Part shown: one piece after another, positions 3,885 through 49,400 of the stretch
How positions within the stretch are numbered: position 1 is the first letter of the stretch
How the letters are laid out: the number at the start of each line of letters is the position of its first letter
DNA from: Leptasterias polaris
Taxonomy: Eukaryota > Echinodermata > Asteroidea > Forcipulatida > Asteriidae
Reading direction: 5' to 3'
Length of the DNA: 64,000 bases
Assembly (NCBI GenBank): GCA_037783415.1
Contig: JAZGTN010000046.1
Location: 3,726,501-3,790,500, forward strand
Made by a program: the position numbers and the translations under genes
The notes under the pieces: generated by a model
Database searches by the model: none
Told to the model about the DNA's origin: nothing
Seen by the model: the letters and a program-made list of their open reading frames with translations, nothing else

Positions 3885-4925
3885 AATTACCCAGAGTGGG
3901 ATTCGACCCTTAAATAATGAAAGGTAAGTAGTGTAACTGCGAATAATATTATTGGGCAATCATTTCTTGATTGTCTAGTTTGTAATTACCAAGGATGGGA
4001 TTCGAACCCTAAATAATGAAAGGTAAGCAGTGTAACCGTGGGCGTGGATAATGCTAATGGTCAATCATTCCTTGATTAACAACTTTGTGATTAACCAGAA
4101 CCCTAAATCATAAAAGGTAAGCAGAATTACCCAGAGTGGAATTCGAACCTTAACTAATGCAAGGGAAGAAGCGTACTATTTCGGATAAGTGAACGGGCAA
4201 TCATTCTTTGATTAACCAGCTTGTGATTACCCATAGTGGGATTCGAACCCTAAAAAACAAAAAGTAAGCAGTGTAACTGCAGATAAGTCAATGGACAATC
4301 ATTCCTTGATTAACCAGTTTGTGATTACCCAAGGTGGCATTCGAACCCTTAACAATGAAAGGAAAGCAGTATAACTGTGAAGGTTTGCCAATCATTCCTC
4401 AATTACTAGTTGTGTTTACCCAGGGTGGGATTTGAACCCTAAATCACAAAAGGTAAGTAGATTAACTGTGGATATTTGGCGACCATTCCTTAATTGACCA
4501 GTTTTGTAATTACCAAGGATGGGATTCGAACTCCAAATAATGAAAGATAAGCAGTGTAACCGTGGGCATGGATAATGCTTAAGGGCAATCATTCCTTGAT
4601 TAACCACTTTGTGATTAACCAGAATGGGATTCGAACCCTAAATAACGAAAAGTAAGCAGTGTAACTGCAGATAAGTCAATAGACAATCAATTCTACCAAG
4701 GCTGGGATTCGAACCCAATGAAAGGTAAGCAGTGAAACCATGGGCGTGGATAATGCTTATGGGCAATCACCCCTTGATTAACCAGTTTGTGTTATCTCTC
4801 TGAGTGGGAATCTAACCCCCCAAAATGGAAGATAAGCAGTTTAACTGCAGATGAGTTAATGGGCAATCATTCCTGGATTAACCAGTTTGTGGATGTCCAG
4901 GATTGGGTTAGAGCCCTGAAAAACT
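3885..4925. repeat. ~100-bp tandem satellite carrying tRNA B-box-like motifs
   Basis: About ten to twelve diverged units, each with a core such as TGGGATTCGAACCCT followed by AAATAATGAAAGGTAAGCAG and TCATTCCTTGATTAACCAG. On the minus strand the core reads GGTTCGAATCCCA, the consensus of a tRNA T-arm and RNA polymerase III B box. No full tRNA cloverleaf is present, so this looks like amplified 3' halves of a tRNA-derived SINE. It lies just downstream of the GTF2F1 stop codon and could be part of its 3' UTR, since no AATAAA is obvious on the minus strand before about 3.8 kb. Confidence 0.75.
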
Positions 4926-4960
4926 GAACGGAATGCAAAAATGCGGCAAATAAAGTAATC

Positions 4961-7900
4961 TCATTCTTTGATGAACCAGTACGTCTTGTCCTTAATCTTA
5001 GTCTGCTGTGGGTTCAATTTCCTCATGATTTCAGTGAACTGTTTGACGAGCATGTCTGACTTGAGTCCTATCTTCTTGGACTTGAGTTTGTAGAGAAGAT
5101 CTTTGGTTGTCATGGGTTTCCGCACAAGGTACCGTCTTATGACATCTTCTGTCAGCCCAACCATCTCCCTGATTTCAACAAAGATAAGTTAATCGTTATT
5201 TTATAAGAATATTAACAGAAGATTATCATCTTGGTTTTAACGTTGCCCCAATTTTTTATTTTGTTAATGTTATTTTAGACAAATTTTAAGGTTTTAAAAT
5301 AAAATAATAATCCACAGGCTACTAAGGTGGTATTTGACCCCATAACCCACACATTCTATTTTGGTTTGACACTCACAGCGATAAGGTAAGTTGTGATTAA
5401 GTTTCAAGATTTAAGTAAATATTTCATGATTTTTCTAAATTGGAAACAAATTTAAAGGAAAAGGTATCAAACTTACTTCCCCGGTGTCCTTGAAGCTGAC
5501 GCACTCTCTTCTGTTTTGTGTCGCTTCGATGAGGAAGCTTCATCGGTACCCGGCCTCTTTAATGAGACTACAAGAAGACAAAATGTTCAGAAAAATTGAT
5601 TAAAAATCCCTGAAACTCAACAACTGAAACATAAAAACAGGGCCACCTACCTATGTTCTGACAACCACTATGTTCCAACACCCCTATGTTCCGACACCCC
5701 CGTGATTCAACAACCCTGTGTTCTGACAACCCGTGTTCCAACACCTCTATGTTCCAACACCCCTATGTTCCGACACCCCCTGTGTTTCAACACCCCTGTG
5801 TTCCAAAACCCCTATGTACCGACACCCCTACATGTATGTTCCGACACCCCTATAATCTGACACCCCTAGTGTACAATAATAAACCTGTCTGGGTGTATGG
5901 TGAGGACTGAACAGAAGTGAATGATCTCTAAAGAGTTAAGGGAGTGGACGAGAAAAATAACCTTGGGTTGAGCAAAGAAAAATTTCCTAGAGTGGGACTT
6001 GAACCTACGACCAATGGACTAACATGCCGGCGCTATACCAACTAAGCTATCTAGCCCTAATGTTGGCATCTCCCTATTTTGTCAACATCTTTGTTCGCGG
6101 AGCCAGTAAGAAGACATACACCCTTTAACTGCCATATAGCCAGGGAAAATAACCATCAAAACGTAAGCAAGAAAAACAACCGTCTAGTGGTGTGATACAT
6201 GAATGGTATAGTAGTAAAACCATGTTTTCATTTCAAATAGAAACATACCTCTGTCTTGTAGCTTATCCGCTGCATCAGACAGTGTATTTGTCGTTGTGGC
6301 GCTGTTCAAATTTGCATTCTGCGTCGGCGTCTCAGGTCTGCTCCCACTCCTACTAGACGTCTTTGAGGGCGTTTTTTGGTTTGGTGGAGTGGCTGGCCTC
6401 TTGGACGGCTTCTTTTGCTGCCAGAAAAATATGTAATAATAATAATAAATTAACTTACAAGCGCAATATTACTGAGAAAACAGCCTCATAGCGCTATGAA
6501 CAAAAACAAAGCTAGATAAAAAGACACGCGTCACGTGTCATACTTTATTTTGCCATGTAAATACTACCATGATGCGTAACGATCCAAAAATTTAATATTG
6601 GAGTCCAATATTGATAAATATAGGACACTTGGAGCACTTCACAGTGTCACTAAACGAGCAGAAAAAAAATAAAAAAATCAGCTGATCAGCTGAAAAGCTG
6701 CATGCCTGCAATAAGTGACCGAATCACCGTACCTTTTGAATTGAATTGAAATGGTTCATTGAAATTCAAATTCTGTAAAAGACAGCTTGAGGGCTGATAC
6801 ATTACGAATTAACAAAAAGTAAAAAGGATAAAATAGAAAGAATAGGCTATGATAATTAAAAAGAAGACGATATAGAGAATAATGTAAAAATTGTGTGTAA
6901 AAAGAGTTAAACGAATGTAGGATATAAAAAACAAACCAAAAAATACAACAACAAACTTTTTTCCACTAACCTGCATTAACATAGCTGAATGAATTTTGGT
7001 ATCGTCGATATCGCTGTCATCCGAGTCTGAACTACTGGAGCTGCTCTCCCCTTTTAAAACAACAAATACTACAATCTCAAGTTACTGTTAAAACCCTACC
7101 ACATTCAACGTCAAGTAGCCGGTTCTAGGCTCTGTTTAAATATGTTGAACTGAGGACTTACTACTGTGCCACAGCCACAATCATGGGTACACTTTTTGTT
7201 ACAAAGACACCAAATGAACAACAGATAAATATTGAGTAACTCTTTGCAGATCTTGTATTTGACAAACTCAAGCACTTTTTATTCATCATTGACACAGCGA
7301 TTGCTAATTGATATATAAATAACATTGAGATATAACTGCTACCAGTGGTTTTCAAACATGTGTACCCATGATCGTGGCTGTGCACTACTGCAAATCTGGG
7401 CCCAATTTCATTGAGAAAATTGCTTCAAAATTTTCTGTGAAGCAAAAGTAAGCAGGATACCAGTCACAGATTGTACATGTGACATGGAATATTGGCTGGT
7501 AACCTTATTCTGGTAAGCATAATTTTGTTGTACTTAGGTACTGTTTTAATCCTTTAACCCTAACAATCCCAAACCCTACAAATTCAAACAGGGCAAAGTG
7601 TTTAATTTTGTTAGGTTAAGTACAGTGAAGTTAGGATTGGGTGGGTGTTTGATTCTGTGGGATTGTGTATCCTTGCTGCCAAGTAATGGTGTTGGAATTT
7701 GATTGAGTGGGTATGGTGGATGTGTGAAATGTACATGTCTGGCATTGCTCTTTCCTCCATGGTCTAATGATGTGTAATTTTGTTTGAGTGGGGATGGTTG
7801 GCAATTTTAGCATTATGTACATGTGTGGAGCCAACAGTATGACAGCGAGAAACCCAAGTTGTGCTTCAAATGAACCGAGTCCAAACAACATTTTGTCCCA

Positions 7901-10900
7901 CATAAAAAAATAGTGTAAAGATAGTTGTTTGATTATGTTACGTTGGGTACTGTGTGATTTCACTGATAAAATTTTGCACATGCCAAGTGTACACACTCCA
8001 ACAAAATCAAACAAAAAAGGCCTGTTGGAGTTTGTTAGGTTGTGTATCATCCCCCTAAGATTGGGTACAGTTCCCATCGCATGGTAGTATAAGCTGTTGG
8101 AATTTGTTGGGTTAGGGATGGATTCTAGTAAAAACGCTTTGGGAGTTAGGGATATATATGTAGATATAAATACAATAAAACTAACCAGTGAAAAGTGCAC
8201 TTCAAAAACCGGGGAGAATATGTCCACGTAGGAAGAATAATCCCTACAGGAATACACAATCTGAGAAACGTTTCTGACAGAAACGTTTCTCAGATTCAAA
8301 TTTGTTTCCATAACCTACATTACATTAATTTTCAAAACGCTTTATACTATTGAAAGCTGCTGTACTTCTAACAAAAGTAAGTTTCTATTGCCATTAATTT
8401 TAAAAGTGATTACCAAAGGTATAACCTCCACTTAAGGTAGGGTGTCTTACCTTCCTTCTTGACTTTCCCCTCAGTTTTTCCGTCCATCTCGTCCTTTTTC
8501 TCTTTTCCGTCCTTCACTTTGTTCTCCTCCTCTTCTTCCTCCTCCTCCTCCTCTTCGTCTTCAATCATTTGTAACTCCTCATCAAGATCCTTGATGTTAA
8601 TCTTTTGTTGTTCCTCCTCATCATCACTGATTGACCAATCACAACACAGGAAGAGAAAAATCAAAGACTTATTAACATCCCAATAATTTAAATAAATATA
8701 TATTCAGTATATTTCCTCGAAAATAAACAAAACACCAATGGTTCTTTTCCCCACACTGACATACCAAGAGTGGCATAATTTTTAGCCCAAAGAAGTTTGA
8801 TCGTCTAGAATGCTGACAAGGCTGACGAGTGTGTGTTCGACTCCCAAATGCAACTGTGAATTAGGCCCATTTCAGACCCATAATGGGCTCCCTGTCGGAC
8901 CCATAATTTCAGACCCATAATGGGCTCCCTGTTTGCCCTCATGCGTTCGTACTAAGTCAGTTGGATTGTTTCACCATCGTCTCAGTTAGTTTACCTACGT
9001 CAAATAATCCAAGTGCAGACGTCTGTCAAATTTACCCTGTTGGAACGTCACCTGTGGTCTCATTAAAAAATTAATCCAAATGCGAACATGGCTTATTTAA
9101 GTCATTTCAAGACTACACACTATCAGAAGTGCGAGTTGCTACTTGCTTGTGTAATTTTTTTTAGATTACTGCTTCTAGGAAAAATGACCTTTCCAGGGTA
9201 AACTATAGAGGGCGCACTGTTTTGTGAATTACCAGTATTGCTATAGACCATGTGACTTGTGCCATCACATGTTTACAAAAGAGCCACAGAGCCTGGACTT
9301 TCTGCAGGCACAGTTTGTACACAGCTCAATGGAAGAATACAAGAAATCTTATGTTTCATGGAGATTGCACTGTCAACTTTTGATATGAAGAAAAGGGGAT
9401 ACATGTTGTATCTCAAAAGCTGCACAGCTGTTGCTTTTGTAATTTTGAATTTCTGTAAAAATTATGACACAAAATGTAAATGTTCCCATATAGCCTGTGT
9501 ACTATCTTACCGTCAGGAAATGCATTATAATGTACAAGGTCACTACTCTGTAAACAAAGGTAACATGGTCTATAAATGGCACCATACCTTGAATCCTCTG
9601 AGATGTAGTCTAGTTCCTTGCAATCAAAATCCCCCTCGTCACTTTCCTCTTCCCCTTCATCATCGGAATCCTGCTTCTTTTTCTTGCTCCGTCTCTTCTT
9701 CGCTCCCTTTTTCTTGGACTTTGATTTGGCTGTGAAGATGTATAGCTCTGAAATTTAGAGTCTTTCAACTACTTAACATAATAACTAGTCACACTGCCCC
9801 ACTTTAACATACAAAACACTGCAACGCATTTGGTCATGAGAGCAAAGTGCAGTGAAATTGTCAGCACCGATGCTGCACTCTTCACACTGGCTCCCCATTA
9901 TCAAACGGATTCAATTCAAAATTATTCTTCTTACATACAAAGCAAGAAATGGCCTCCCTCCCACATACCTTAGTAGTCTCATCCCTCAAAGGTTGCAAAC
10001 CTCATTCATCAACCTTCGATCAATACCAATATCCACTATCAACTCTCCCTCGGCCCACACATAAACACCCCGCTATGGTCAATGAGCGTTCCCAGTGGCT
10101 GTACCAGCACTATGGAACAAACTCTCTCTGCACATCCGAGACGAGACTCACCCTCCATCAACTCATTCAACACTCAGTTGAAAACACAAAGATATATAAA
10201 TATATATATATGTTCATACATTTTTTACATCAAGAGAACCCAGCACAAGAAAAAGGTTCCCTGGGCTCGATTTTCACAAACAGCTATAGATTGATCTTAA
10301 CTGCGAATCAATCTTAATTGCTAAGCAAAGTGTGAAGTCACAATACAAATTACTATGGATCTTAGTGCTTTAAGAAATCGAACCCCAGTGCAATTTAATT
10401 AAGATCAGGTTGGTTCAGTGGTTTCTTTCCCTGCCTTTCACCTCTGTGGACCCAGTTTGAGTCTCAACTCAGACCAAGAGGGGATTGGGTTTTCAGTCTC
10501 TACCTAATTCATGTAATTGAGTGGGTTTCCCCAATTTGGGGTTTTCCTCCCACATCTAAAACTGCAGGCATGGAATCACACGGAGACCAGGGTCTCTGTT
10601 GCCCCTTGTCTTGGCCTTGGTGCCCCTACAAAAGTTTCCCAAAGATTTTCCTTTTCTAATGGAAGTGCCCTCTGCAGAATGAAAATGGCCTCTCAAAGAT
10701 AAAATTCCAGGCCTGAAATTAAACATTTCTTCTTGTCTCCTATTCCTCATCCTGTGGATGTTGGATGTGTAATGAAATAACAATAACAGTAATACTAATA
10801 ATAGTGGCTTCTTATACAGCGCTCATATCCGTCACTCAGTGAGGCTCAAAGCCCTTCAACAGTCAGTATTTTTATGCAAGGTACATGTATGTGGACAAGT

Positions 10901-32800: not shown

Positions 32801-35800
32801 ACAAAGGTCCCACCGGGAGGGTTGGGGGTGTCATTATTTACCTGTGGAATAAATCAATGTATGCTTATGGGTGGATTTTCTACTGGTAAAGTTTAGTCAA
32901 CAATAGACATAAAGGGATGTTTCCTGTTGCAGGAGCTCTAAGACGTTCAGATTTCAAGGGGTTTGAAAACTAATTATAATTTTTATTTTTATTTAATTTT
33001 TTTTTACTTATAGGCCTTATTGTTTGATCTGTTTGTGTTTGAGGAACAATTTCATTTATTTTCACGATTAAAACATACTAAATAAAAGCATAGAGAAAGG
33101 ATAGTATGGTGTTCCATATGTGCCATCCATTCCGTCGCCTTTTCAATTTTTTCCGTCGCCTTTTCAATTTTTTCCGTCGCCTTTTCAATTTTGGTCCGTC
33201 GCCTTTTCAATTTTTTCCGTCGCCTTTTCAATTTTGGTCCGTCGCCTTTTCAATTTTGGTCCGTCGCCTTTTCAATTTTAGTCCGTCGCCTTTTCAATTT
33301 TGGTCCGTCGCCTTTTCAATTTTGGTCCGTCGCCTTTTCAATTTTGGTCCGTCGCCTTTTCAATTTTGGTCCGTCGCCTTTTCAATTTTGGTCCGTCGCC
33401 TTTTCAATTTTGGTCCGTCGCCTTTTCAATTTTGGTCCGTCGCCTTTTCAATTTTGGTCCGTCGCCTTTTCAATTTTTTCATCGTGGGTCCACGTGACTA
33501 CCAGGTGATTATCACATGACTCCAAAGGAAATTCGACCTTTGGGAGGCATACCGCTGTTGCCAAAATGTATACGTTGCTTCATCCACAGTCGAGACCAGA
33601 TAGCTATGGGGCGCCGTTTGTCAATTAATTTGTTAGCGTATTTTTGACGTGTTTTTACCATGGTTTGTAATAATTAGATGTAAACCATAGAAAGTGCTGT
33701 CAATTTATTTTGTGGTTTACATTTTTATTTTATTTCAGCCACATCCAACAGCGCAAGCGCCAATAACAGGATGGATAAAAACATTAAATTACATAAAATA
33801 GCACAATAATTTTTTTTAAACAAACAAAACAAGACAGAGATTAAAATGGTGAACAGTTCTTACATCAAAAAAATAAATAAAAAGTTAAAACATAAGTTAC
33901 ACTCTGGACCCGACCTCCCCCTTCAGATAAAAAAATCACAAGATTTCATTGATTTTATGTTTGAAGGCAGGAAGGGTGAGGTGGAAAATGTCAATACTGG
34001 GATTTGAATGGGTAATTCTGTTGTAATTAGAAGACAGACGATGAATAAAACCGTTTTTAGTGGCATTGACTTTATTGTTTGGAACGTAAAACAGGTCAGG
34101 ATGCCGAAGGTTGGGGCGGGGAATCTTCAGGGGAAAAAGGGAAAACTATGGTGGCCCTGAAGGGACATCGCATATCGCATACGTGTGCGCACACGTATGC
34201 AATGTCGTGAAACAAATCGCGAATATGTGCGCACACGTATGCAATGTCGTGAAACAATTCGCGAATATGTGCGCACACGTATGCAATGTCGTGAAACAAA
34301 TCGCGAATATGTGCGCACACGTATGCAATGTCGTGAAACAATTCGCGAATATGTGCGCACACGTATGCAATGTCGTGAAACAATTCGCGAATGTGTGCGC
34401 ACACGAGTGCGAATATATTTGCAATGTCGTGAACGTTTATTGCATACCAAGTTGCATACCTTTGGGATGATGTCATAGTTGCAGACAATTTGTTAGAGAC
34501 CTAGGGAGTACGTGGCGCTACAGTCAGGCTCCTGTAAGCATGGCTATACAATAATGTGTACCCAAGAACTTGGCACCAGGCCAAGTTTCGCCAACATGTA
34601 CTACAGCATAAGCTATCTACCTACAGCCCACTAATAATTGTACTTGTGCTATTACAATCAAGGTCGAAGAGTACGCACGCGCGAGGGTATTTTACGGTCA
34701 AACACGCCCATATGTTAATAGCCCACGTTCGTCCTGGGAAAAAAAGAAATACGCTACCCGCCTCGCTTGCCTCACAACAATGACTACCGCTGCAATGACT
34801 ACCGCTAATCTCACTGTGGGCAAGAAACCCCCCAGATCATTAGACATTTTATTCAAAGGTATGCAACTTGGTATGCAATAAACGTTCACGACATCGCAAA
34901 TATATTTGCAGACGTGTGCGCACATATTCGCGAATTGTTTCACGACATTGCATACGTGTGCGCACACGTTTGCGATATGCGATGTCCCTTCAGGGCCACC
35001 ATAGAAAACAGATTACTGGTAAAGTAAGAGTTCACACATTTGAAAAGAAAAGTCAGATCCAGACTCTGTCTACGTTTCTTTAGTGAATCAAGAGGAGACA
35101 AATTAACAATATGTGTGTTGTCTACATTGTTGCCAAGGAAGCGAAGGAATTTGTTTTGGATGCGTTCAATGCGAATTTCATGGGAAGCTGATATTGAGTT
35201 GAAAGAAACAGATGAGAATTCAAGACTAGGTCTGACAAGGGAGCAGTACAGCAATTGTTTAGTCTTGAGATCTAAGCTTCTACAATGGCGCCAAAAAATT
35301 CCAAGCATGCGGTTTGCCTTGGCAACAATGGAGTCAATGTGAGGAGAAAATGTTAACTTAGAGTCAATAATAATACCTAGATCTTTATGGGTTTTTACTC
35401 TTTCCAATTGCGACTGGGCTATTCTATACTTGAACACAATGGGTTTGGTTTTCAAAGTAATAGTAAGTGATTTGCATTTGGTGGGATTCAATGACAATTT
35501 CCATGTGGATGACCACGCAGACAGCCTCCCCAAATCTTCCTGCAGCAGTTGGGCATCACAATGCGCCCTGACCGTGCGAAACAGCTTCAAATCATCGGCA
35601 AATAAAAGACTCTGAGAGTGATTAAATTTAAGGGGAATGTCATTCACAAACATATTAAAAAACAAAGGACCCAGTACAGAGCCCTGTGGGACACCTGATG
35701 TCACGGGTTGCCAGTTTGAGGAACAGCCATTAAAAACAACCCGTTGGAGTCTACCTGTCAGATAACTATTAATCCAGGTGAACAGATGTCCAGATGTCCA

Positions 35801-38800
35801 GAAATGCCAAATTTGCTGATCTTATGCATTAGCAGATCATGCTGGACTGTATCAAATGCTTTTGAAAAGTCCGTGTAGATAATGTCACAATCAAAGCTTA
35901 TAAATTATGGTTTATAAACCATGAACATTGAATCATCATGTCGGAACCTGTTATAAATTGCATTATAACTACTTTAAGGTTGTCCGACGAAGTTTATTTT
36001 TAATATAATTTCTACTTCTTTAGCATTCGCGAAAAGGGCAAGATGCTCTAATTCCCCTTAGTTTACTAGTCCAGAAAGTGTTATAACACCTCCATGGGGG
36101 AAGGGTAGAATTGCTGTTCCCACGATATTCTGCTGACCACAGCATATTTGGCACATCCGGAACTACCCCAGGGACATTACGTAAAGCCTGCCTGCATTCG
36201 CACCATTTTGCAAGTTATGTCTTAGTGTTAGATTTTGCCACGTTCGCCACTGTAGTATAGCACTTGGCTATTGGTTGGGCCCTGAGTCTAGGCTGGATAA
36301 AAGTGTAGAGGACGAAACGTCTTACAAGGTTAGCAGCTGGCTCAAGACTGCCTCGTGGCTGGCCCGCTCGCACAGTCCAGCCACTGACACGCTTGGGTGA
36401 CTTTATTGTATTCCAATCGTAATGGCTACAACATAATAATGTACATCACTACACTCCTCCCCGGGGCATTTTTTTTATTTTTATTTTTATTTTTATTTTT
36501 TGAGAGGGAGGGTGTCAAAAATTCAAAAATTCAAAAAAAATATCACATTAAACGTACATTTTTAAGGAGAAAACAAAATGCAAATTCAAACACAAGTTCA
36601 GTGGAACACCTATTGCAAAAAACATGTCTAATCTTCCCGCCTCAAAAATTCCAAAAGTATATCATAATATATGTACACTGTATAAGTAGAAACAGAATGA
36701 CAATAAATGAAAAATTTGCGGAACACCTACTGAAAAACATGTCTATTTCTTCTCTTGTGAACAGAAAATCAAAATAAAATTTATTTTAAATTGGCTTGGG
36801 GTCATGACTTGACCTCGTTTTCATCTGACAAGATATAGATCTAATGAAACAAAACAGTGCAACAAAATATAATGTCTAATGCAACATGTATACAGTTTAT
36901 AACACATCACTTTACATAGACCGGTCGGAGCAAATTAACGTGTAGCAGTGGAGATGGATTCTCCACATTCTGGGAAGGGTCTGCCTAACAATTTTGAAGC
37001 AGTCCGGTTCAGCATCCCTACAATGCAATACTACTGGTAGGTTGGAGTTGACTGCCAATACTAGTAGCTTCTTGAAGACAGCTTGCTGCTTCTCCTTGTA
37101 CCGGTAGTAACTGCCCGAGTAGTCAAGGCCAATCTCACCAAGAACGCAGACATTTGAAGTGTCCAGCACATGCCGGATCAAAAGCTCTGCGTCCCTGGTG
37201 AAATTGTGAGCGTTCTTCGGATGATATCCGACTGCAGCATGCACCCCGGTACTCTCAATCAACGCTTTCTGATTTTCCCATTTGCTCAGACTGGCCTCAT
37301 CGCAAAATACTGTGATGCATCCTTTGAAGCCTGGTTCGACGAAGCGGCGTTGCTCCAAGAACCCATCGAGTGAGCCAGTGTAGCCGGAAACGCGGAAGAG
37401 CCTATCCAGATGGCAGTGCGAATCCACAAACTCTGAAGAGTAACTAAGGGGTGATGAAATATAGGGCGGGGTCCAGGAGAGGAGGCGCTGTAGCGTCCGC
37501 CAATGGAAAAGTGACGAGACGCGTGTGGGGTCTTCCAAGTTCCGCTGATGTATCTTTGGTAGACCCATGTAGCTGTCGTAGCTGTCCCAAACGGTCAGTT
37601 CTTCTACTGGGAGGGATGACTGTTGGTCGCCCAACCTATAGTGGGAGACTAACTGCATCAGGTCTTTGGTGTGGTTTAGCCTCAACTTGCTGGATAGGTA
37701 TTCAAGAAAAAGACTGACCTGGGCTACCAGCTTTGTAAGATGCGTTTCGGCTTTAAATGGACCGTGGGACTTGATGTGTGTCGAGATCTCCAACTTCTCA
37801 CAGGTCCAGCATGCCATCAGTGGATACAGTGCCCACCATTGTCCATCGCAGATGTGGTAGCGGACGACATGCCTCTTCATCTTCCTGGTTTTGTGGTCGC
37901 ATCCCTCCTGAGGGCAGGACTGCAGACCAGAATGGCCTCGTCGTCCCCCGGTCTTCTCTGGGGCCATCGTCACCACGGATGGCGTGTCAGGGTGGGCGAT
38001 GTTGCTGTTGACGTCAGTGTTGTTGTTATTTTCTTGCGCTAGTTCCATTTGGAGGTTTCCCAGCAAACACCGGTCTGCCTCCCCATGCAAGTTAATATTG
38101 TCGCTCGTTGGAGATATACATTCTTGTGATTGTTCCATGTGGAGGTTTCCCAGCAAACACCGGTCTGCCTCCACATGCAAGTTATTGTCACTTAATGGAT
38201 ATATACATTCCGGGTCCACTTCCTCGCCTCTACCAACCACATGCCCTCTCATTAAACGAATGTACGAATTACTTTGATTGCGGAGGCACATGATTCCCTG
38301 CTTTGTAGTTGGGTCGTTCTGATGAACTAGACTATGCGGAATTAGAATACCTTTATGGTTAATTTCCGGGCCGTGAATTATATATGTCTTATTTGATGAA
38401 TGAGAAAATTCGATTTTAGCGTTCACTAGGCTGTGAGGGGGAACGATGGTTTTTCTTTGAATTATCACCCTTTGAACTGAGTATTTCTCATTTTTGTTTT
38501 TTCTCATGTGTGCCTGGACGCTACAACCATCCAGATTCAATGTGTCGTTATTTAGGTCAATAACGCCGGAATATGTTTTGAGAAAGTCTAATCCCAATAT
38601 AACGGTGTCTTCAATAGGGGCATTGACAAAATTCCATTTGAAGCTGCGATTACCTAAAATCAGGCTTACTGGCTTCATTTTATGTGCAAGCATGGTGCTG
38701 GTTTTGTCGGCACCCTTTAAAATTAATGGCTCTTCTACAAGGGCTGCATGTCTAATTTTATTGGTAATTTCATTGTTCAATATCGACACTTGTGCTGCGG

Positions 38801-41800
38801 TGTCCACCACAGCGCAAGTGCAGACCCCTCCGACTTGAATTGGAACGACGAGAGTTATACCGGGATTAGTTGAAAATTTAACTTCCTGAAGTGCAGCTAC
38901 GGGAACATTTGTTTTGCAGGGGGTTTGTTCTAATTTTGAGTTATGATGGCCCAAAGTTTTTTTAACCTGGACTGGTTGTAGGCCGGTGCAACCAGTCTGC
39001 ATTAGTTTAAAGACGCCTTGTTGAATCTTTGTGACGGTGAAGGTGAGCGCGGTCTAGCATTATGAGGGCAATCTCGGGAAAAGTGACCAATCGCATTGCA
39101 CGTAAAACACCGTGATTGTCTCCCGGGTGAGGGGGGAGGCGATTGGGCGCGGCGTGGGGAGAAACTACGTGTGTTTGTGGCAGGGTTGCCTGATTTGTCT
39201 GGTAAGCGGGTAATAGGGCTGTTGTATTCAGGCAGTGGTTTTTGTGGACCTGATTGTGGTCGGGGACCCTTTAAGCAAGTTACTAATTCGCGAACGTTTT
39301 TGTTTAGATCTGACCAATCAAGATGAACATCCAATTGATCCGGCCCAGTTTGTTTTACTTGAATTTGTTTAACCGCAAGTGGTTCTGTCGGGCCGAAAGA
39401 GACATGTCTTAGTCTTGACCTTCCCTGACGGGCTAGCAGTTTATGGTTATGGGTCGCAGTTTGAGTATATTGGACCGCCTGATTGAGTGTTTGGGGGTCC
39501 CTAAAGAGAGCCATTTCGGCAGCGTCGACGTCTAAACATCCTCGCAAAAATGCTTCCCTAGCTAATGTTTCGAATACATCTGTTTGCGCTGTGGGGAATG
39601 CCCGCGTTGTTAATTGACGCACCCGCTGCCCAAATTCTTCAAGGGATTCCTCATCTCTTTGTCTTATGGACGACAGTTCTGAACGGCTTATTATAGGGTC
39701 TTTTGTTTTCCCAAACATTGTTAGAAGGTGTTCCCTACTTTGGTCGTAGTTCCCCTTAATGAAAATCATGAAAGTCATCTAATTTGACCACGCCCTTGAT
39801 GTCCCTGACTGCTACAATTGCCTGGGCAAATTTTACACCGATCCCAGGAAGGGCGGTGAGTTCTTTCACCGGGGCAGTATTTATGTTTACTAGCATATTT
39901 ACGATTACAAATTAAACACTGAAAGCTGTCTTAGTATCGCTACAATTGTGATAGTCACTGATTTGAATCTTTCTACCAACGCCCCTGTTGAAATGACGCT
40001 CAACAGTTTGACCGGATTGGTAGAAAGCTGAATTATTTGGCGTAACACTAAAAATAAGTGTAAGTTCGGAAAATCTGCTCAAGTACCTCGCTATGCGACA
40101 AAAACAGCTTTTAAATATTCAATTATAATAATTGTGATAATAATTAAAGTATAGCGTGGCAGAGCTGAAAGTCAGCCACACTATGACAAATAAATAAATA
40201 TTTGCGGCAGTCACTCGCTTCCACTGTTAATGCCTTCTGCTGGGAGTGACGCTCAGCAGTTTGACCAGGATATAAACAGTAGTTAAATTTTGTATTTAGC
40301 CAAAAATGAACGTTGCCGTTCCTCCCTTTTTTTTTATTTTTTTATAAAACGCACCACGCAAGGCAATACAAGCAACAAGCACAAACTAGGACAAATTCAT
40401 ACACAATTAAGCTTAATAATGGCACAATATTATATTTAAGTCTAGGGGGCAACTGAATTACTTGCTCTACTTGTAAGCTGGTTTTAATTTTGGCATCGAC
40501 AAGTTCAGCAGAACCGAGGATGTCGATATATAGATTTTGGCAACGACAAATTCAGCCGAACCAAGAATGTGCACATAAAGTAAAGCTGGGTCCTAAAGCT
40601 GTCCCCACTGTTAATCAACAAATATTTTGTGGAAAATGCCACTAATATATTAATTGAAAAGAGCAAATTTAATAAATACACTAAATAAATTTCGACAAAT
40701 TCCGAAAACTCGTCAAAATTAGCTTGAATAATGATACAAGCTGATTTTTTTTAAATGTTTTATGTCAACTGTAAAAGATGACGGTTCGGCTCTTTTCAAT
40801 TAAACCTAAAAATACCTCAATTTAGTAGAATACTTTAATCTGGAAATTTATCCTCGTCGCCAATGTAGTATAGCACTTGGCTATTGGTTGGGCCCTGAGT
40901 CTAGGCTGGATAAAAGTGTAGAGGACGAAACGTCTTACAAGGTTAGCAGCTGGCTCAAGACTGCCTCGTGGCTGGCCCGCTCGCACAGTCCAGCCACTGA
41001 CACGCTTGGGTGACTTTATTGTATTCCAATCGTAATGGCTACAACATAATAATGTACATCACTACACCACCATCCTTCCAAATTTGGTCGTCTTTGCTGA
41101 CCACGTAATTATTTAAAAATGTTAGTCCACTAGTCTTTTTGTGATTGGTTGAAGCTCATTTAGGACATCATTGTTTTAAGACTTTGACCAATCAAATAGT
41201 TTAATTCTGTCCGAGTGCGTGACCAGCCGGGTTTTTAAACCCATGTTTCGCTCCTGGCTCCTCAGAAGCGAGAACGGCCTGAGATGCTAAGTCAGAAAAA
41301 GTGTCCCGCTATACACTTTGTCTTGACTTGATTGGAACGCGACGACTTTTCCCTAAAAGTGGTTCCTAAACTATTGCATCCCTTTTTTACGTGCTCTGTT
41401 GATACAGATGTACTAGCCCCCCAGGTCCGCTTTGGTAGATACGACCCGGTTCATCTCTCCACCTTGCCCCGGCTTCTCAACCCCTTTCATCGCCTTTTCC
41501 TGGACCTTGAGGTTGTCATCTTGGAGCCCATCTGAGTGACGTGCACCTTCCATCCCCAGCCGTAGATGTGCAGATAAACCCAGCTAAGATCTTTACCAAT
41601 ATCCATGTATTTTCACAGATGTATTTTTGTATATTTTATCAAGTGTTAAATCGTATTCCATTTGATGATAATAATTTCTAACTGAAGCTATTGTATTTTA
41701 ACCTACACTTGTATTTATCAAATTCTTTATATTTCAATTGCTTGTTTATCATTTACATACTGTTGTTGGCATTGATTCGTATGAACAAATAATAATACGG

Positions 41801-44800
41801 TGATTCCAGTTAGAGAATCAAACCACATATATAGCTGTCCGTTGCGTTTATTACCGAGCAAGTTTCCCTTACACAACATCGAACCGTTCGCAGGCTCGTA
41901 TTTAAATAGAGGTAAAACCTGTGACAATCATAAAACATGCATGGTTTATAAACCATGAAAATTTAAGCGCCTTCAAAACATGGTTTATAAACCATACAAA
42001 TTTAAGCATCAAAACATGGTCTACAAATCATGGTTTGATTTGTGAACACACGTTTTTTATGGTTTATAAACCATGAATCATGATTTGTAAACCATGTTTA
42101 CATGTTTTGTGCTTAATTTTTCATGGTTTATAAACCATGTTTTATGAAGCTTCAGTTTTCATGGTTTATAAACCATAATTTATAAGCTTTGATTGTATGT
42201 AAACCACAAAATAAATTGACAGCACTTTCTATGGTTTACATCTAATTATTACAAACCATGGTAAAAACACGTCAAAAATACGCTAAACAATTAATTGACA
42301 AACGGCGCCCCATAGCTATCTGGTCTCGACTGTGGATGAAGCAACGTATACATTTTGGCAACAGCGGTATGCCCCCCCCCCCCCCCCCCCAAAGGTCGAA
42401 TTTCCTTTGGAGTCATGTGATAATCACCTGGTAGTCACGTGGACCCACGATGGACAAATTGAAAAGGCGACGGACAAAATTGAAAAGGCGACAGACAAAA
42501 ATTGGCGACGGACCAAAATTGAAAAGGCGACGGACCAAAATTGAAAAGGCGACGGACCAAAATTGAAAAGGCGACGGACCAAAATTGAAAAGGCGACGGA
42601 CCAAAATTGAAAAGGCGACGGAAAAAATTGAAAAGGCGACGGAAAAAATTGAAAAGGCGACGGAAAAAATTGAAAAGGCGACGGAAAGGAGTGGCACATA
42701 TGGAACACCATAGGATAGTCCTTTCTCTATGATAAACTCTATGATAAAAGACACTTACGTTTGCCTCCTGAAGAGCTTGACTATTAATTAACCCACGCAA
42801 CGTGACCGCTCTGGCCAACCACTGCCATCGGAACGTCTTTGGGGAAAGTAGCGTCCAGATAGGCGGCGCTAAGCGTCGGAAGATCGGGTACGAGCTCCGG
42901 GTCCCAACCGAAAAACAAACCCCATTTGTTGCTCCCTTGAACACTAGTGCGTATCTGCCCAATTTCCTTCATTTCTTTCTCCAGCACAGCATGAATCTCC
43001 TGGTAGCTCCTTCAATTAAATGTACAAGTAAATTGTTAATTTTAAGTAATTTAAAGTAGAAGTTTGTCAAAAAGCCCCTTTCAATTTCCCATGCGCACAT
43101 GACAATCTTCAAAGTTCGTTTGTTAAAAATCCCCCTTTAAATTTCCTTTCCAGGCCTTGAATTTCACGGAAGCCGCGGAGGCCATGGCCTCTGTTGCCCC
43201 TGGTCTTGGCCTTGGTGCCCCTTCAAAAGTTTCTCATAGGTTTTCCAATGGAAGTCCCAGCTAACACATTACGTTGCTACAACATTGCACAACGTTGTGA
43301 TAAGGTTGCAATTTGGTCGATGGGCTGACAACGTTTTGACGACGTTGTATGAACGTCAGATCTTAACATGATTTTTAACCAATGTTGTACTTTGGTTGCA
43401 TGTTGGTAGTTTATGCAACATTACCGAAAAGTTTTTCACCGAACGTTTTCACAACATTGTATTTAGGTATTATTACAACGTAGTATTTAAGTTAGGGCAC
43501 GAACGTTGTGAAGAAGTTATTTTTTGGTCTCGTTAGTGTTCATGCGTTTTGCACGTACGTACGACGTTCATTAAGCTCTTGTCCAATAAAAAGGCTCTGT
43601 TATGAAGACTCCACCCCAATCGCCACCCTCTACGACTGTCTAATCCTTATAATCCCACAATGAGCCCGGTCTGTCATTGTTCGTTTTCTTCCACTCCGTT
43701 GATTTGCAAGGAAGGTCGTCAAGAAGACAATGCTAACACTATACTTCATTGAGTTGTCTGCCGCTCAGAGGTTAGGAATCTTTCTGGCGATGGTGGCGTC
43801 ATTATTTTGTGCTTGCCTTACACGTTTTCCTGTTTGGTGTGTGGGGGTGTGTGATTGGAGGGATTGGATTGTTTTTTCTTGGGCGGGGGGGGGGGGGGGG
43901 GATGAAGAGATAAATAAGTATTCCAATCCCAAACCCATCCCCAGTCGTTACGACACTAATCAGCTACCAGCAGTGCCCATTGTCGGGCTAGGATTTACAG
44001 AGTCATAAAACCCCGTTGAAGATCCCGTTGAATGGCTGCTATAAATGAAAAGTTTACTTGTATCACGTATCTGATTTTCTTTTCATGAAAATCAGTTATC
44101 TTGATCATCTACTTATAGAAGTTAAATTTCTTATTGCACTGATATAATGTTACTGTAAACAATGGGAAGATTGAACGTAATTAAGTATTGTTCTTTTGGG
44201 GGAAGGGGTCATTTAATACATGTTTTTATTTACCCAGTGCAGTCCAAAACAAAACTCGGGTTGGATGCCGTCTTCATCGGAGGAATCCAATTTGGGCTCG
44301 CAAAAAATCTGATTTCCGTTTGGGCCTTAAAGAATTACTGCTTAATCTTTTAGGTACATCTTTTATATTACATTTGTACAGACGACGTATCGTTTGAAAA
44401 GACACCTAATCCTTTTGGTACGTCTTTTATAACACATTTGTACAGACGACGTATCGTTTGAATAGACACCTAATCCTTTAGGTACGTCTTTTATATTACA
44501 TTTGTATAGAGGACGTATCGTTTGAAAAGACACCTAATCTTTTAGGTACGTCTTTTATATTACATTTGTACAGACGACGTATCGTTTGAAAAGACACCTA
44601 ATCCTTTAGGTACGTATTTTATATTACATTTGTACAGACGACGTATCGTCTTTTATATATACTTTCCATATGTAAATGAGTCAAATGCAAATTGCTCTAA
44701 CCTAGGTTTAGCGAAAGACTTATATATATCTGTCTACGTCTGTGACCAACACATTTCATCATGGCCCACAGACAACAAGCCCGGTTACCTGTCCATAATG

Positions 44801-46413
44801 AAGAGAGGCGTTTGGTTTTAGAGGGCTACCGAGCCCATGGAAACCAATGGGGCCTGGTTGTAGACTATGTTATTGAAAACTCCCTTCCTGAAGAGGAAAT
44901 AAATCAGCACTATCTCCGTAGAAACGGGGTCCAGCAAAGGAGAAGAGTGCGAGAGATCATCAATCGAGATATTGGCAGGTATTGGCTAACATGCAAATGC
45001 TTGTGATTTTTATGTGACTTTTTTGTGTTACAGCTGTTTAATTACAATTTATTTCTATTTAGGCTATTATAAGTTTCAGAAAAAGGTTTTATGTCCCATA
45101 TACATAGATACACATAAACAGGAATAGGCCTGTACAAAATATTACAAACAAAAGAGAATCGAAAAAGAGCGAATAGAATAAGAACAAGATTTAGGCCTAT
45201 GGAACAGGAACAAAGTAATCGTGCTATATTTATAGATAAAACGTATGCCTACCTGTAGGGGTTACCGAGCATGCATTTGCACCCCAAATTACCACAATAA
45301 TCCAAGTTAATATTATTCCTTTTTTTTTCAAAACGAAATTTTTTTAAATAAAAACAAAACACACATTTGAAAAGCTGTCACTTAAAATCCCACCTATTTC
45401 AATGTCAATTTCAAAATGTTCCACCCCCCCCCCCTCTTGTACGGATATGAATCAATATTAACAAACGTTTAAATTGTCATAAATTATGCCAAGATGTACA
45501 TTTTGTCTTATTCTTCATAAATCCAAGTAAAATGAGAGGCTCTGAATGGGAACTGATTCCAAAACGATGTTTAATTTTGTTAGATTTTTAGAATAATCGT
45601 TACCCCCGATAGTTTTGTTAGATTCTTAGAATAATCGTTACCACCCCCGCCCCCTTTTCAAACGTCACCTTTACCTAAGCACGTGATGACTTCATTTTTT
45701 ATTTTATTTTTGCAGGCTCCAGGAGCAGAGGCTTGCAAACATGCGACATGCAGCCAGGGGCAATCCATACCAACGGAGACAACGAAATGTTGAGCTGGAG
45801 TTGCCTGCACAACAGCCGGCACCACCACCACCACCTCCAGAACCCGAAGCTCTTCCTCAACATGCACCGATGGAGCCAGAGGTAGCACCTGCACAACCCC
45901 GTGAACGAGCACCTCTATTTCAAGAACCCCCTGACCCACCACAAGGTCCACTTCATCACCTTCAAAATCAGCACCATGACGACCTACCAGCACCAAGACT
46001 TGCAAATGATGATGATTGGCTTCCTCAAGAGCAGTACCCACAACAACAACCACCCCCGCGGCAGGCACCCCCACCAGTTGACCCAATAGACCAACATGAA
46101 CTTAATGATAATCCTCCTAATTTTCCTCGGGGTAGAAACATCCCTTTACCTCGAGGCCAGCAGGGGAGGCAGCCATTATACCAAATTATACGGGACAGCC
46201 ATGTTGGTTTTTTACATTATGTCAACAATATTTTACCTGTTTTGTCCATTGAGTTCTACAATACTATGCGAATGTTCCAAAGGTACATGTTAAATTTACA
46301 GGGAGAGGATGACAACTGGCAACACAACTACCCCCGCCCACCACAGCCACCGCCACCAAGACAGCGGCAGCAACAGCCTTGGCAACAACAGCAGCAGCCT
46401 TGGCAACAGCAGA

Positions 46414-46467
<54 letters not shown>

Positions 46468-49400
46468 GTCGACAACAGCAGCAACCTCGGCAGCAGCAAC
46501 AGCCTCGGCGGCAGCAGCAACAGCCTCGGCGGCAGCAGCAACAGCCTCGGCAACAGCAACTACAGCAGCCTCGGCAACAGCAACAGCCTCAGCAACAGCA
46601 ACAGCAACAGCAACAGCCTCAGCAGCAAGAACAGTTACAGCCTCAGCGACAACAGGAACAGCAGTAGCAAAAATTAAAAAAATACATAATTATTTTATTT
46701 TGGCTCTTTATTTTTACTTTCAATTGTCTTTTCATGTAATTTTCTTTGAGCACCATTAAAGCAAAGAAGCATAGGTTGCCAAATTTTATTCTGTGTACTG
46801 ATCAATTATTGACTCACACATTTATTACTCCACAAAAGAAAATAATTATTTTTAATTATATTGTTGAAAAAATTTATGGTGCTACCTGTGGAAAAAACGC
46901 TACTAGTTTGCCAGTTTTTAAGTTAGAAGTTCCCTTTTTAATACATTGTTTATAACCCAATTACAAATCAAGTTTTTTATCAATAAGTAAACAAGGAACT
47001 CACCTCGCCATAAACTTAGCGAGTAAAATAATTACGGGATATTAATTTAATCCAGTAATAGGCGCAATTTCCCTGCATGTCAGGACAGCAGTGTGTTGTT
47101 GTTAATATCTATTGTTGCAAATCCACGAGTGAAACGATATTGAACAATGGGCTACCGAACTCATTATGAAATTCTATAGACGTCGACGGTCGAAGTGGGT
47201 TGGATTTTCTTGGATCTGTGGGCGGAGTCAGCAAAGCAGAGCTTTTCATTGGCCAAGAGCTTTATGGCCGTTGTACGTACGTGCAAAACGCATGAACACT
47301 GATAAAACGTATTAATTATGTTGTGACATGCACGTTGTCTGCACGTTGCATTTTGGTTTTATCAAAACGTCATAGTGGTGTTCATGCGTTTTGCTCGTAC
47401 ATACACTAGGTCATAAAGCTCTTGGCCAATGAAAAGCTCAGCTTTGCTGACTCCGCCCAAAGATCCAAGAAAATCCAACCCACCTCAACCGTCGACGTCT
47501 ATACGCCTCTCTTAATATTCATGCATGACGTCATAATTCTTACTTAAAATGAGGCTATAGGCGCGCGTCCGCCACCACTTGCAGTGGCTGCGCCTATGGC
47601 CTCGTTTTGGGTTAGAATTGTGACGTACTCGAGCATAAATAAGAGGCGTATAGAATTTCATAATGAGTCCGGTAGCCGATTGTTCAATTTCGTTTCACTC
47701 GGCGTGGATTTGCAACAATGGATATTAACAACAATACTGCTGTCCTGACAGGGAAATTGCGACACAGGGAATACGCGTGCGGGGACAGTTTGAATAAATG
47801 GCGGATAATGGTGGGGGCATATTCATATCCCGTAATTATTTTACTCGCTAAGTTTTTGGTGAGTTCCTTGTTTACTTATTGAGTAAACTTGATTTGTAAT
47901 TGGGTTATAAACAATGTATTAAAAAGAGCACTTCTAACCTAAAAACTGGCAAGTGGTGTTTTTGTCCACAGGCAGCACCATAAGTTCAGGTTTCAAAAAT
48001 ATAATTAAAAATAATTCATTTTTTCGTGGAGTAATAATGTGTGAGTCACAGACGTAGACAGATATATCAGTCTTTCGCTAACCTAGATTAGAGCAATTTG
48101 CATTTGACTCATCTACATATGGAAAGTATGTATAAAAGAATACGTCGTCTGTACAAATGTAATATAAAAGACGTAGGCCTACCTAAAGGATTATCTGTCT
48201 TTTCAAACGATACGTCGTCTGTACAAATGTAATATAAAAGACGTACCTACAGGATTAGGTGTCTTTTCAAACGATACGTCGTCTGTACAAATGTATTATA
48301 AAAGACGTACCTACAGGATTAGGTGTCTTTTCAAACGATACGTCGTCTGAACAAATGTATTATAAAAGACGTACCTACAGGATTAGTTGTCCTTTCAAAC
48401 AATACGTCGTCTGTACAAATGTGATATAAAAGATGTACCTAAAAGATTAAGCAGTAATTCTTTAAGGCCCAAACGGAAATCAGATTGTTGGCGAGCCCAA
48501 ATTGGATTCCTCCGATGAAGACGGCATCCAACCCGAGTTATGTTTTGGACTGCACTGGGTAAATAAAAACATGTATTAAATACCCCTTCCCCCAAAAGAA
48601 CAATACTTAATTACGTTCAATCTTCCCATTGTTTACAGTAACACTATATCAGTGCAATAAGAAATGTAACTTCTATAGATGATCAAGATAACTGATTTTC
48701 ATGAAAAGAAAATCAGATACGTGATACACAAGTAAACTTTACATTTATAGCAGCCATTCAACGGGGTTTTATGACTTTGTAAATCCTAGCCCGACGATGG
48801 GCACTGCTGGTAGCTGATTAGTGTCGTAACGACTGGGGATGGGTTTGGGATTGGAATACTTATTTATCTCTTCATTTTTCCCCTCAAATTTAGGACGAAA
48901 AGCAGTCAAAAGCACCATTTAAATGAAAATCAAAGCATCAAGTCTCCGCTGTAAGAAAACCAGTTAAAAATACCCAAGCGTTTTGAAGGAAAGCGGGATT
49001 TAAAAAAGCGTTCAACATTGAACGCCGCTTTCTCCGATTGTTACTTTTCACTGGGATCTACGTGTGTGTGGCGTCGGTGACGATTTGATTGTTACAGTCA
49101 CATTGACAAAATGTGTCTCGAAAGTAAGCATTCATGACTTGTCGCATGACTGCTTGCAATGGTTAATTGTCTCATACAATGTATACACTACATGAAACTT
49201 CGGAGTCTAGACACTATTGTGTACACCCATTGCATTTATTTGCACATTTGATATTTTAAAAGTTATAGGTCATTAATTGTCGCATGACTGCTTGCAATGG
49301 TTTATTGACTGATACAATTTAAACGCTACATAAAACTTTGGAGTCCAGGCACTATTTTGTACATAACCAGTACATACATTTGTACATTTGATAGTTTCAC

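What the first reader, a model, noticed from the sequence alone, without database searches (positions are those of the whole stretch)
36251..41066. LTR retroelement encoding HhH, Gag, protease and a TatD nuclease in place of reverse transcriptase
Seen: identical 203-bp LTRs, CCAC duplications, primer-site-like and polypurine sequences, and three coding frames. The pol frame has a retropepsin and the pre-RT stretch of Gypsy elements, then switches to a C2H2-like segment and a TatD domain. No RT, RNase H or integrase motif exists between the LTRs. Known: standard Gypsy elements run protease-RT-RNase H-integrase; TatD proteins are host DNases. Inference: a non-autonomous element that captured nuclease and HhH sequences and still moves by borrowing an RT. 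A DNA-binding HhH plus a nuclease fold packaged by Gag would be an unusual cargo.
Basis: partly seen in the sequence, partly recalled or inferred. Interest (0 to 1): 0.92.

Follow-up and report, generated by a model that had tools for sequence, protein, structure and literature searches.

The report
Jumping gene with its own nuclease
The window holds a crippled copy of a virus-like jumping gene, probably from an echinoderm; fuller relatives in the same genome carry, besides the usual replication genes, a conserved gene for a TatD-type nucleic-acid-cutting enzyme.

Summary
In detail: identical LTRs, CCAC duplications, PBS, PPT, HhH, Gag/CCHC, retropepsin and a TatD segment, without RT, RNase H or integrase. 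The reading is half right: TatD did not replace RT. The same genome (630 Mb; mitochondrial code points to an echinoderm) holds a full-length copy with the same LTR: HhH-Gag / PR-RT-RNaseH / integrase / ORF4 = zinc-finger module plus complete TatD nuclease. The window copy is an internal-deletion derivative. A 3.56-kb deletion removed RT to IN and fused protease in frame to the resident TatD; a 436-bp deletion cut off the end of TatD with two catalytic acids; a private deletion split HhH from Gag. Four copies share the first two deletions at four target sites, so the RT-less form moved in trans. Five divergent LTR families read here carry ORF4 between integrase and the 3' LTR, with invariant catalytic residues and purifying selection. 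A sea-star protein annotated TATDN2 is probably the same ORF. So: a Gypsy lineage with a TatD accessory nuclease, which no paper found in my searches appears to describe (open-licence library only; Repbase not available). Its function is inferred, not shown.

The parts
36247..36250 (.). target-site duplication CCAC, left side
36251..36453 (-). 3' LTR (sense strand is minus), 203 bp
   Evidence: 28 places in the genome
36454..36462 (-). polypurine tract GGGGAGGAG next to the 3' LTR
   Evidence: same or similar purine tract in 4 of 4 divergent families checked, least alike in C135
36912..39002 (-). fused ORF protease - zinc-finger module - truncated TatD, 696 aa from ATG (713 aa stop to stop)
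   Evidence: open in C46, C73, C77, interrupted by TAG in C40
36939..37427 (-). TatD_DNase, N-terminal 156 of 253 profile positions; metal ligands up to the H152 equivalent, no ETD motif
   Evidence: residues from PMC4176340, assigned by motif
37473..37916 (-). C2H2-like/CWxC zinc-finger module plus linker that precedes TatD in ORF4 (named from its Cys/His pattern; no Pfam match)
36940..36941 (-). junction of the 436-bp deletion that truncates TatD (shared by 4 copies)
38021..38027 (-). junction of the 3.56-kb RT-RNaseH-IN deletion, 7-nt overlap AACAACA; fuses PR in frame to ORF4
38577..38843 (-). retropepsin
39002..39778 (-). C-terminal Gag and CCHC knuckle (N-terminal part of Gag deleted)
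39761..39765 (-). junction of a ~0.84-kb deletion in ORF1 not shared by C40, C73, C77
39765..39902 (-). HhH motif, start of ORF1, now out of frame with Gag
40850..40863 (-). primer-binding site TTGGCGACGAGGAT (complementary to the 3' end of tRNA-Ser(GCU); recalled, not tested)
   Evidence: same motif in 4 of 4 divergent families checked
40864..41066 (-). 5' LTR, 203 bp, identical to the 3' LTR
41067..41070 (.). target-site duplication CCAC, right side

Best explanation
The window element is an RT-less internal-deletion derivative of a Ty3/Gypsy LTR retrotransposon of a probable echinoderm. Full-length members encode HhH-Gag, PR-RT-RNaseH, integrase and, in the place where retroviruses have env, a fourth ORF: a zinc-finger module plus a complete class II (TATDN2-type) TatD nuclease. 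Shown: deletion joined protease in frame to the resident TatD; the RT-less form stands at four separate insertion sites, so it was mobilised in trans; ORF4 is a conserved, selected part of several divergent families. Inferred: ORF4 is made from its own (probably spliced) mRNA and acts as an accessory nuclease on RNA, RNA-DNA hybrids or damaged 3' ends, either in the element's own reverse transcription and repair or against a host control in the germ line. In the window copy this nuclease is predicted dead, because two essential acidic ligands are gone.
For: Same LTR at 28 places. C102:5157242-5166774 is a 9533-bp copy with four open frames and identical LTRs (Pfam RVT_1 1.4e-30, RT_RNaseH 4.6e-32, rve 5.2e-16, TatD 1.8e-51 over 1-253). 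The window copy maps onto it at 98.8, 99.9 and 99.6% in its three long blocks (89.6-96.1% in the non-coding 3' end), with deletions 1300-2144, 3886-7443 and 8531-8966. C40, C73 and C77 share the last two, with TSDs CTAG, CAAG and ATAG against GTGG here. Four further families (C68:1507639, C58:3590757, C135, C50) have the same gene order, a HhH match before Gag (partial in C135) and LTR pairs outside ORF4 with the same PBS. ORF4 across 5 families: pS 0.80-0.85 (saturated), pN 0.31-0.39; HCH, E, H, H and ETD invariant in 5 of 5. E201A and D203A kill E. coli TatD (PMC4176340, passages). A strong 3' splice-site-like AG lies 5-10 nt before the ORF4 ATG in 4 of 5 families (approximate weights).
Against: No transcript, protein or enzyme data. 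In C102 pol is split over two overlapping frames (ORF2, ORF3), whereas it is one frame in the C58 and C68 families, so it is not shown that C102 itself is active, and it is the only full-length copy of its LTR family that I found. One of 5 families (C135) has no good splice acceptor, and the eight best donor-like sites of C102 lie inside ORF1 to ORF3, none in the leader. PR/RT relatives without TatD downstream exist (8 of 42 at 43% identity or more in the subset; L051 has RT and IN but no ORF4 match in 8 kb), so ORF4 is not essential to every relative. ORF4 evolves faster than the RT/RNaseH piece (mean pN 0.36 against 0.20).
Confidence: 0.9

Rival explanations
1. One reading: an element that recently captured host TatD and HhH sequences in place of RT, by template switching to host mRNAs.
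For: LTR elements are known to capture genes (search listing); TatD is fused in frame to protease in the window copy.
Against: A full-length copy with the same LTR carries both RT-IN and TatD. ORF4 occurs in five divergent families read here. HhH is the N-terminus of ORF1 in other copies and families.
Confidence: 0.03
2. ORF4 is a neutral hitch-hiker: an old capture carried along without use.
For: Derivatives without most of ORF4 also moved (C196a and C196b have TSDs). Among near-identical ORF4 copies dN/dS is noisy (0.15-0.76, few changes).
Against: Across 5 families synonymous sites are saturated while pN is 0.31-0.39, open frames of 490-544 aa persist in 4 of 5 (ORF4 of C50 has one TGA), and all catalytic motifs are invariant. 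Proteins of the same kind occur in other sources, one of them Patiria miniata.
Confidence: 0.08
3. ORF4 helps the element's own replication: removing RNA from RNA-DNA hybrids or primers, or trimming and repairing damaged cDNA ends (3' exonuclease / AP endonuclease).
For: TatD enzymes are 3'-5' exonucleases and AP endonucleases (PMC4176340, PMC10085689 passages); TATDN2 is cited as an RNA exo/endonuclease that resolves R-loops (PMC12709183 passage). A second RNase H was fixed in plant Tat elements (PMC10508981 abstract).
Against: The element already has RNase H. ORF4 is a separate ORF, not fused to Gag-Pol in full-length copies, so packaging is not evident.
Confidence: 0.4
4. ORF4 is a host-directed counter-defence or nuclear factor, degrading silencing RNAs or tuning R-loops and repair in germ cells, made from a spliced mRNA in the env position.
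For: Splice-acceptor-like sites before the ORF4 ATG in 4 of 5 families; tatdn2 acts in medaka germ cells (PMC12709183 abstract). A Gypsy lineage with a fixed RNA demethylase, proposed to answer host surveillance, is known in orchids (PMC9289625 abstract).
Against: No direct evidence; no donor found in the leader; C135 lacks a good acceptor.
Confidence: 0.4

Closest known systems
Ty3/Gypsy (Metaviridae) LTR retrotransposons
   Same: TG..CA LTRs, 4-bp TSD, PBS, PPT, Gag-CCHC, PR-RT-RNaseH-IN order (full-length copies)
   Different: extra ORF4 (zinc-finger module + TatD) between IN and PPT, and a HhH motif at the start of Gag; the window copy lacks RT-RH-IN
Orchid Ty3/Gypsy elements with an AlkB RNA demethylase ORF (PMC9289625; outline with abstract, Introduction and passages seen)
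   Same: an extra nucleic-acid enzyme fixed as an added ORF in a Gypsy lineage
   Different: demethylase, 25-kb plant elements; here a nuclease in animal elements of about 9-9.6 kb
Tat LTR elements with an additional RNase H (PMC10508981; outline with abstract seen)
   Same: a second nuclease gained and kept by an LTR lineage
   Different: RNase H next to the native one in pol; here a TatD domain in a separate ORF
Cellular TATDN2
   Same: class II TatD domain with the HxH motif; among the sequence-search hits
   Different: no zinc module in the octopus and scorpion proteins aligned (P0006, P0024); cellular ones lie apart in the tree
Non-autonomous LTR derivatives (LARD/TR-GAG types; recalled)
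   Same: internal deletions with LTRs, PBS and PPT kept; mobilised in trans
   Different: keeps a PR-TatD fusion frame
Env-bearing Gypsy elements (errantiviruses; as reviewed in PMC12440569, passages seen)
   Same: extra ORF after integrase, here with a splice-acceptor-like site
   Different: ORF4 is a nuclease, no envelope

Membership tests
Ty3/Gypsy LTR retrotransposon (full-length copy C102) | PR-RT-RNaseH-IN order between LTRs with PBS, PPT and TSD | tested here: met
   pol split over two overlapping frames
Ty3/Gypsy LTR retrotransposon (window copy) | encodes RT and integrase | tested here: not met
   region deleted; a derivative, not an autonomous member
TatD DNase family (ORF4 of full-length copies) | complete TatD domain with metal ligands E91, H127, H152, E201, D203 (E. 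coli numbers) | tested here: met
   1-253 of 253 in C102; HCH, E, H, H, ETD invariant in 5 of 5; ligands from PMC4176340, assigned by motif
TatD DNase family (window copy) | same ligands | tested here: not met
   ends shortly after HLHCYT; no ETD
TATDN2 clade | class II HxH motif | tested here: met
   HCH; class definition from PMC10085689; TATDN3 shares it
TATDN2 clade | groups with cellular TATDN2 in a tree | tested here: inconclusive
   deep forks weak; no TATDN1/TATDN3 outgroup in the tree; element ORF4s group with ZnF-TatD proteins, cellular ones apart
TatD as an active enzyme | nuclease activity | not testable with these tools
   needs a bench assay
Troyka | CG..CG termini and 3-bp TSD | tested here: not met
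   TG..CA and 4-bp TSD; definition from PMC12440569 (abstract, passages)
Env-bearing (errantivirus-like) Gypsy | envelope glycoprotein ORF after IN | tested here: not met
   ORF4 of C102 matches TatD alone in Pfam at E <= 0.01

The most novel reading that the evidence does not exclude
A Gypsy lineage of echinoderms, and perhaps of other marine animals, has fixed its own TatD nuclease as an env-position accessory gene, made from a spliced mRNA and acting on RNA-DNA hybrids or silencing RNAs; many multi-copy 'TATDN2' genes annotated in animal genomes would be this retrotransposon gene, and RT-less derivatives that keep ORF4 would spread it further.
Probability: 0.4. Interest if true: 0.85.

Novelty: new variant of a known kind. 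Interest (0 to 1): 0.72.

Why it matters
Fixation of a new domain in an LTR retrotransposon lineage is described as rare (PMC9289625 abstract). A nuclease of the TATDN2 kind, whose cellular relative is reported to resolve R-loops and protect germ cells (PMC12709183 abstract), carried and conserved by a retrotransposon points to RNA-DNA hybrids or small RNAs as a point of conflict between host and element, and gives a single purified protein on which to test it. It also warns annotators: a 'putative deoxyribonuclease TATDN2' can be a retrotransposon ORF, as is likely for one in the sea star Patiria miniata (tree; its genomic surroundings were not seen).

Tried and rejected
Viral and prokaryotic contig collections gave no relatives: LTR pattern in viral contigs 0; zinc-module profile in viral contigs (53 stretches, none confirmed) and genome contigs (97 stretches, none confirmed); P0001 in viral contigs (11 stretches, none confirmed). 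16 phage records matched; the 5 listed match the TatD part only, at 27-37% identity. Congruence of RT and TatD trees could not be judged: the five families form an unresolved star. Both structure predictions had not returned when last asked, so no fold search was run. The CCHC-TatD proteins (P0026, P0028, P0030-P0034) were considered as further element fusions; they form their own clade (100/99) and nothing shows that they are mobile. Microhomology at deletion junctions: block overlaps in the map are 7 nt at the shared RT-IN junction and 0 at the shared TatD junction; nine further junctions of other copies give 0, 1, 2, 2, 3, 3, 3, 6 and 21, so no general rule. The counts took block ends without their overlaps and are set aside. 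A first motif search missed HCH in C172 only because the copy has Thr for Ser beside it.

Literature: TatD with retrotransposon and gag, 0 papers; TatD with 'LTR retrotransposons', 2 papers by listing, neither on such elements as far as title, abstract start and term counts show; TATDN2 with retrotransposon, 8, with transposable elements, 5; broad searches, of which only the top rows were listed. Only open-licence papers were searched and Repbase was not available, so such elements may be filed there under Gypsy names.

Full report
What is in the window. The element at 36251-41066 reads on the minus strand. Its two 203-bp LTRs are identical and flanked by CCAC on both sides. The sense strand reads 5' LTR, PBS TTGGCGACGAGGAT, a HhH motif (HHH_3 1.6e-10), Gag with a CCHC knuckle, a 696-aa ORF with a retropepsin and a TatD segment, the tract GGGGAGGAG, and the 3' LTR. 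TatD_DNase scores 6.4e-29, but over positions 1-156 of 253 only; the frame ends shortly after HLHCYT, before the ETD motif.

The host. The genome search places the window at C46:3726501-3790500 of a 629.7-Mb assembly in 334 contigs. Its COX1 matches solved COX1 best when AAA is read as Asn (844.7 bits with code 9 for 1occ, against 812.9 with code 5 and 809.7 with code 13), which with TGA=Trp and AGA=Ser is the echinoderm/flatworm mitochondrial code. The tree neighbour Patiria miniata (below) favours an echinoderm.

The partner. A public protein (P0001, 417 aa) is 88% identical over 42% of the window ORF (BLASTP) through the protease and then differs, reading like the start of a Gypsy RT; in the genome its best match is C102. 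The LTR occurs at 28 places. At C102:5157242-5166774 a 9533-bp copy with identical LTRs (TSD CTAC) has four open frames: ORF1 583 aa (HhH, Gag, CCHC in one frame), ORF2 934 aa (PR, RVT_1 1.4e-30, RT_RNaseH 4.6e-32), ORF3 554 aa (Integrase_H2C2, rve 5.2e-16) and ORF4 528 aa stop to stop, 509 from its ATG (TatD 1.8e-51 over the whole profile). ORF2 and ORF3 overlap by 74 nt in different frames, whereas pol is one frame in the C58 and C68 families; whether C102 itself is active is not shown.

The derivative. Against that copy, the window element lacks 1300-2144, 3886-7443 and 8531-8966. The 3.56-kb gap removes RT, RNase H, IN and the start of ORF4; the two blocks overlap by 7 nt (AACAACA) and it joins protease in frame to the zinc-finger/TatD part. 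The 436-bp gap removes the last 97 of 253 TatD profile positions. The copies at C40, C73 and C77 have the same two gaps but keep the ORF1 part that the window copy lost, and differ by very little (C46 and C73: 1 mismatch in 3511 nt, and 4 mismatches and a gap in the other 1303). Their TSDs are CTAG, CAAG and ATAG, and GTGG here (sense strand). Four insertions of a form that has no RT mean mobilisation in trans. In E. coli TatD, E201A and D203A abolish activity (PMC4176340, passages); by motif these residues are the missing ETD, so the TatD of this copy is predicted inactive.

A swarm of deletion forms. Of the other two-LTR copies fetched, C172 and C75 keep IN (with a short gap in C172) and complete ORF4 but lost RT; C68 keeps complete TatD in a 991-aa fused frame; C48 and the tandem array at C121 keep TatD from about profile position 28 or 69 on; C196a and C196b keep RT but lost most or all of ORF4. 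All 10 single copies with two LTRs in which both flanks could be read have perfect 4-bp TSDs (C46, C40, C73, C77, C196a, C196b, C172, C102, C68, C48); C75 and the C121 array were not scored, and C47 and C247 gave one LTR each. C250 is a solo LTR with TTAG on both sides. Among the fetched copies only C102 has every gene.

A lineage, not an accident. PF01026 gives 96 matches in the genome and ORF4 gives 102; both are lower bounds. In a subset of 56 of the 132 PR/RT matches (second pieces and short RT-only rows dropped), 34 of 42 with 43% identity or more have TatD downstream and 0 of 14 with less. Of the eight without, one is C196b of the same LTR family, and another (C58:2730497, locus L051) has RT and IN at 55% and 43% but no ORF4 match in the 8 kb fetched, so ORF4 may mark a sub-lineage. 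Four divergent families were read (C68:1507639, C58:3590757, C135:123971, C50:4300939): gene order Gag / PR-RT-RH / IN / ORF4, a HhH match at the start of ORF1 in 4 of 4 (partial in C135), LTR pairs (100, 100, 90 and 98.5% identical) outside ORF4, the same PBS in all four, purine tracts, and TSDs legible in three (ATAG, TATA, GTAC). C135 and C50 carry broken pol frames, and the ORF4 of C50 has one TGA.

Selection. Across these five families ORF4 has pS 0.80-0.85 and pN 0.31-0.39; the RT/RNaseH piece has pS 0.82-0.96 and pN 0.16-0.23. Synonymous sites are saturated while the protein stays 47-55% identical over its last 380 residues. The metal-binding motifs HCH, LGExGLDY, HCR, HLHC and ETD are invariant in 5 of 5. 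Near-identical copies give too few changes for a rate (0.15-0.76).

Other species. The zinc-finger/TatD architecture recurs in proteins from other sources. In a tree of 34 TatD domains, a Patiria miniata protein annotated 'putative deoxyribonuclease TATDN2' (P0013) joins the C135 ORF4 with support 99/98, P0012 joins C68 with 100/97, and P0014 joins C102 with 83/79; cellular TATDN2-like proteins lie apart, but deep forks are weak. P0018 and P0035 were dropped before the tree (no motif; a long insert). The genomic neighbourhoods could not be read, so that these are element ORFs is inference.

How it may work. ORF4 is a separate frame after IN. In 4 of 5 families a pyrimidine-rich AG lies 5-10 nt before its ATG and ranks 1st to 6th among 600-642 AGs of the stretch; in C135 the best ranks 146th of 626 (weights from memory). 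This suggests a spliced mRNA as for env, but no good donor was seen in the leader of C102. TatD enzymes are 3'-5' exonucleases and AP endonucleases (PMC4176340, PMC10085689 passages); TATDN2 is cited as cutting RNA and resolving R-loops and is needed in medaka germ cells (PMC12709183, abstract and passages). I therefore expect an accessory nuclease acting on RNA-DNA hybrids, RNA or damaged ends. Whether it serves the element's own cDNA or counters the host is open, and I give the two about equal odds.

What is known. Extra domains in LTR elements are rare but documented: chromodomain, env, an added RNase H, an RNA demethylase, and the planarian giant Gypsy elements (PMC9289625 abstract and Introduction; PMC10508981 abstract; PMC12440569 abstract and passages). 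None of the searches made listed a TatD-bearing LTR element by title, abstract start or term counts; of the broad ones only the top rows were seen. The library is open-licence only and Repbase was not available.

Noticed in passing
34940-35704: Fragment of a non-LTR (LINE-type) reverse transcriptase ORF on the minus strand beside the element (named from its translation, no family search).
   Followed up: no
35887-35939 and 42144-42196: 92% complementary arms and repeated palindromes ATGGTTTATAAACCAT straddle the LTR element, as if it had inserted into a palindrome-rich repeat.
   Followed up: no
33131-33477 and 42456-42685: 22-bp minisatellites with similar units in opposite orientation on either side of the element; 64-bp units likewise at 44343-44649 and 48140-48449.
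   Followed up: no
45741-46667: 308-aa ORF rich in Gln and Pro over a CAG-type repeat; coding status unknown.
   Followed up: no
G000:C121, about 100-113 kb (L025, L026): Tandem array of deletion-derivative units that share LTRs (LTR-body-LTR-body-LTR).
   Followed up: partly
G000:C15:7050640-7668428: Seven recurring ZnF-TatD copies, each broken at the same place, probably a large segmental repeat that carries an old ORF4.
   Followed up: no
P0026, P0028, P0030-P0034: A separate clade of CCHC zinc-knuckle + TatD proteins in unnamed sources.
   Followed up: partly
P0037: A ZnF-TatD protein filed under a Sedimenticola MAG; by its relatives it may be animal contamination.
   Followed up: no
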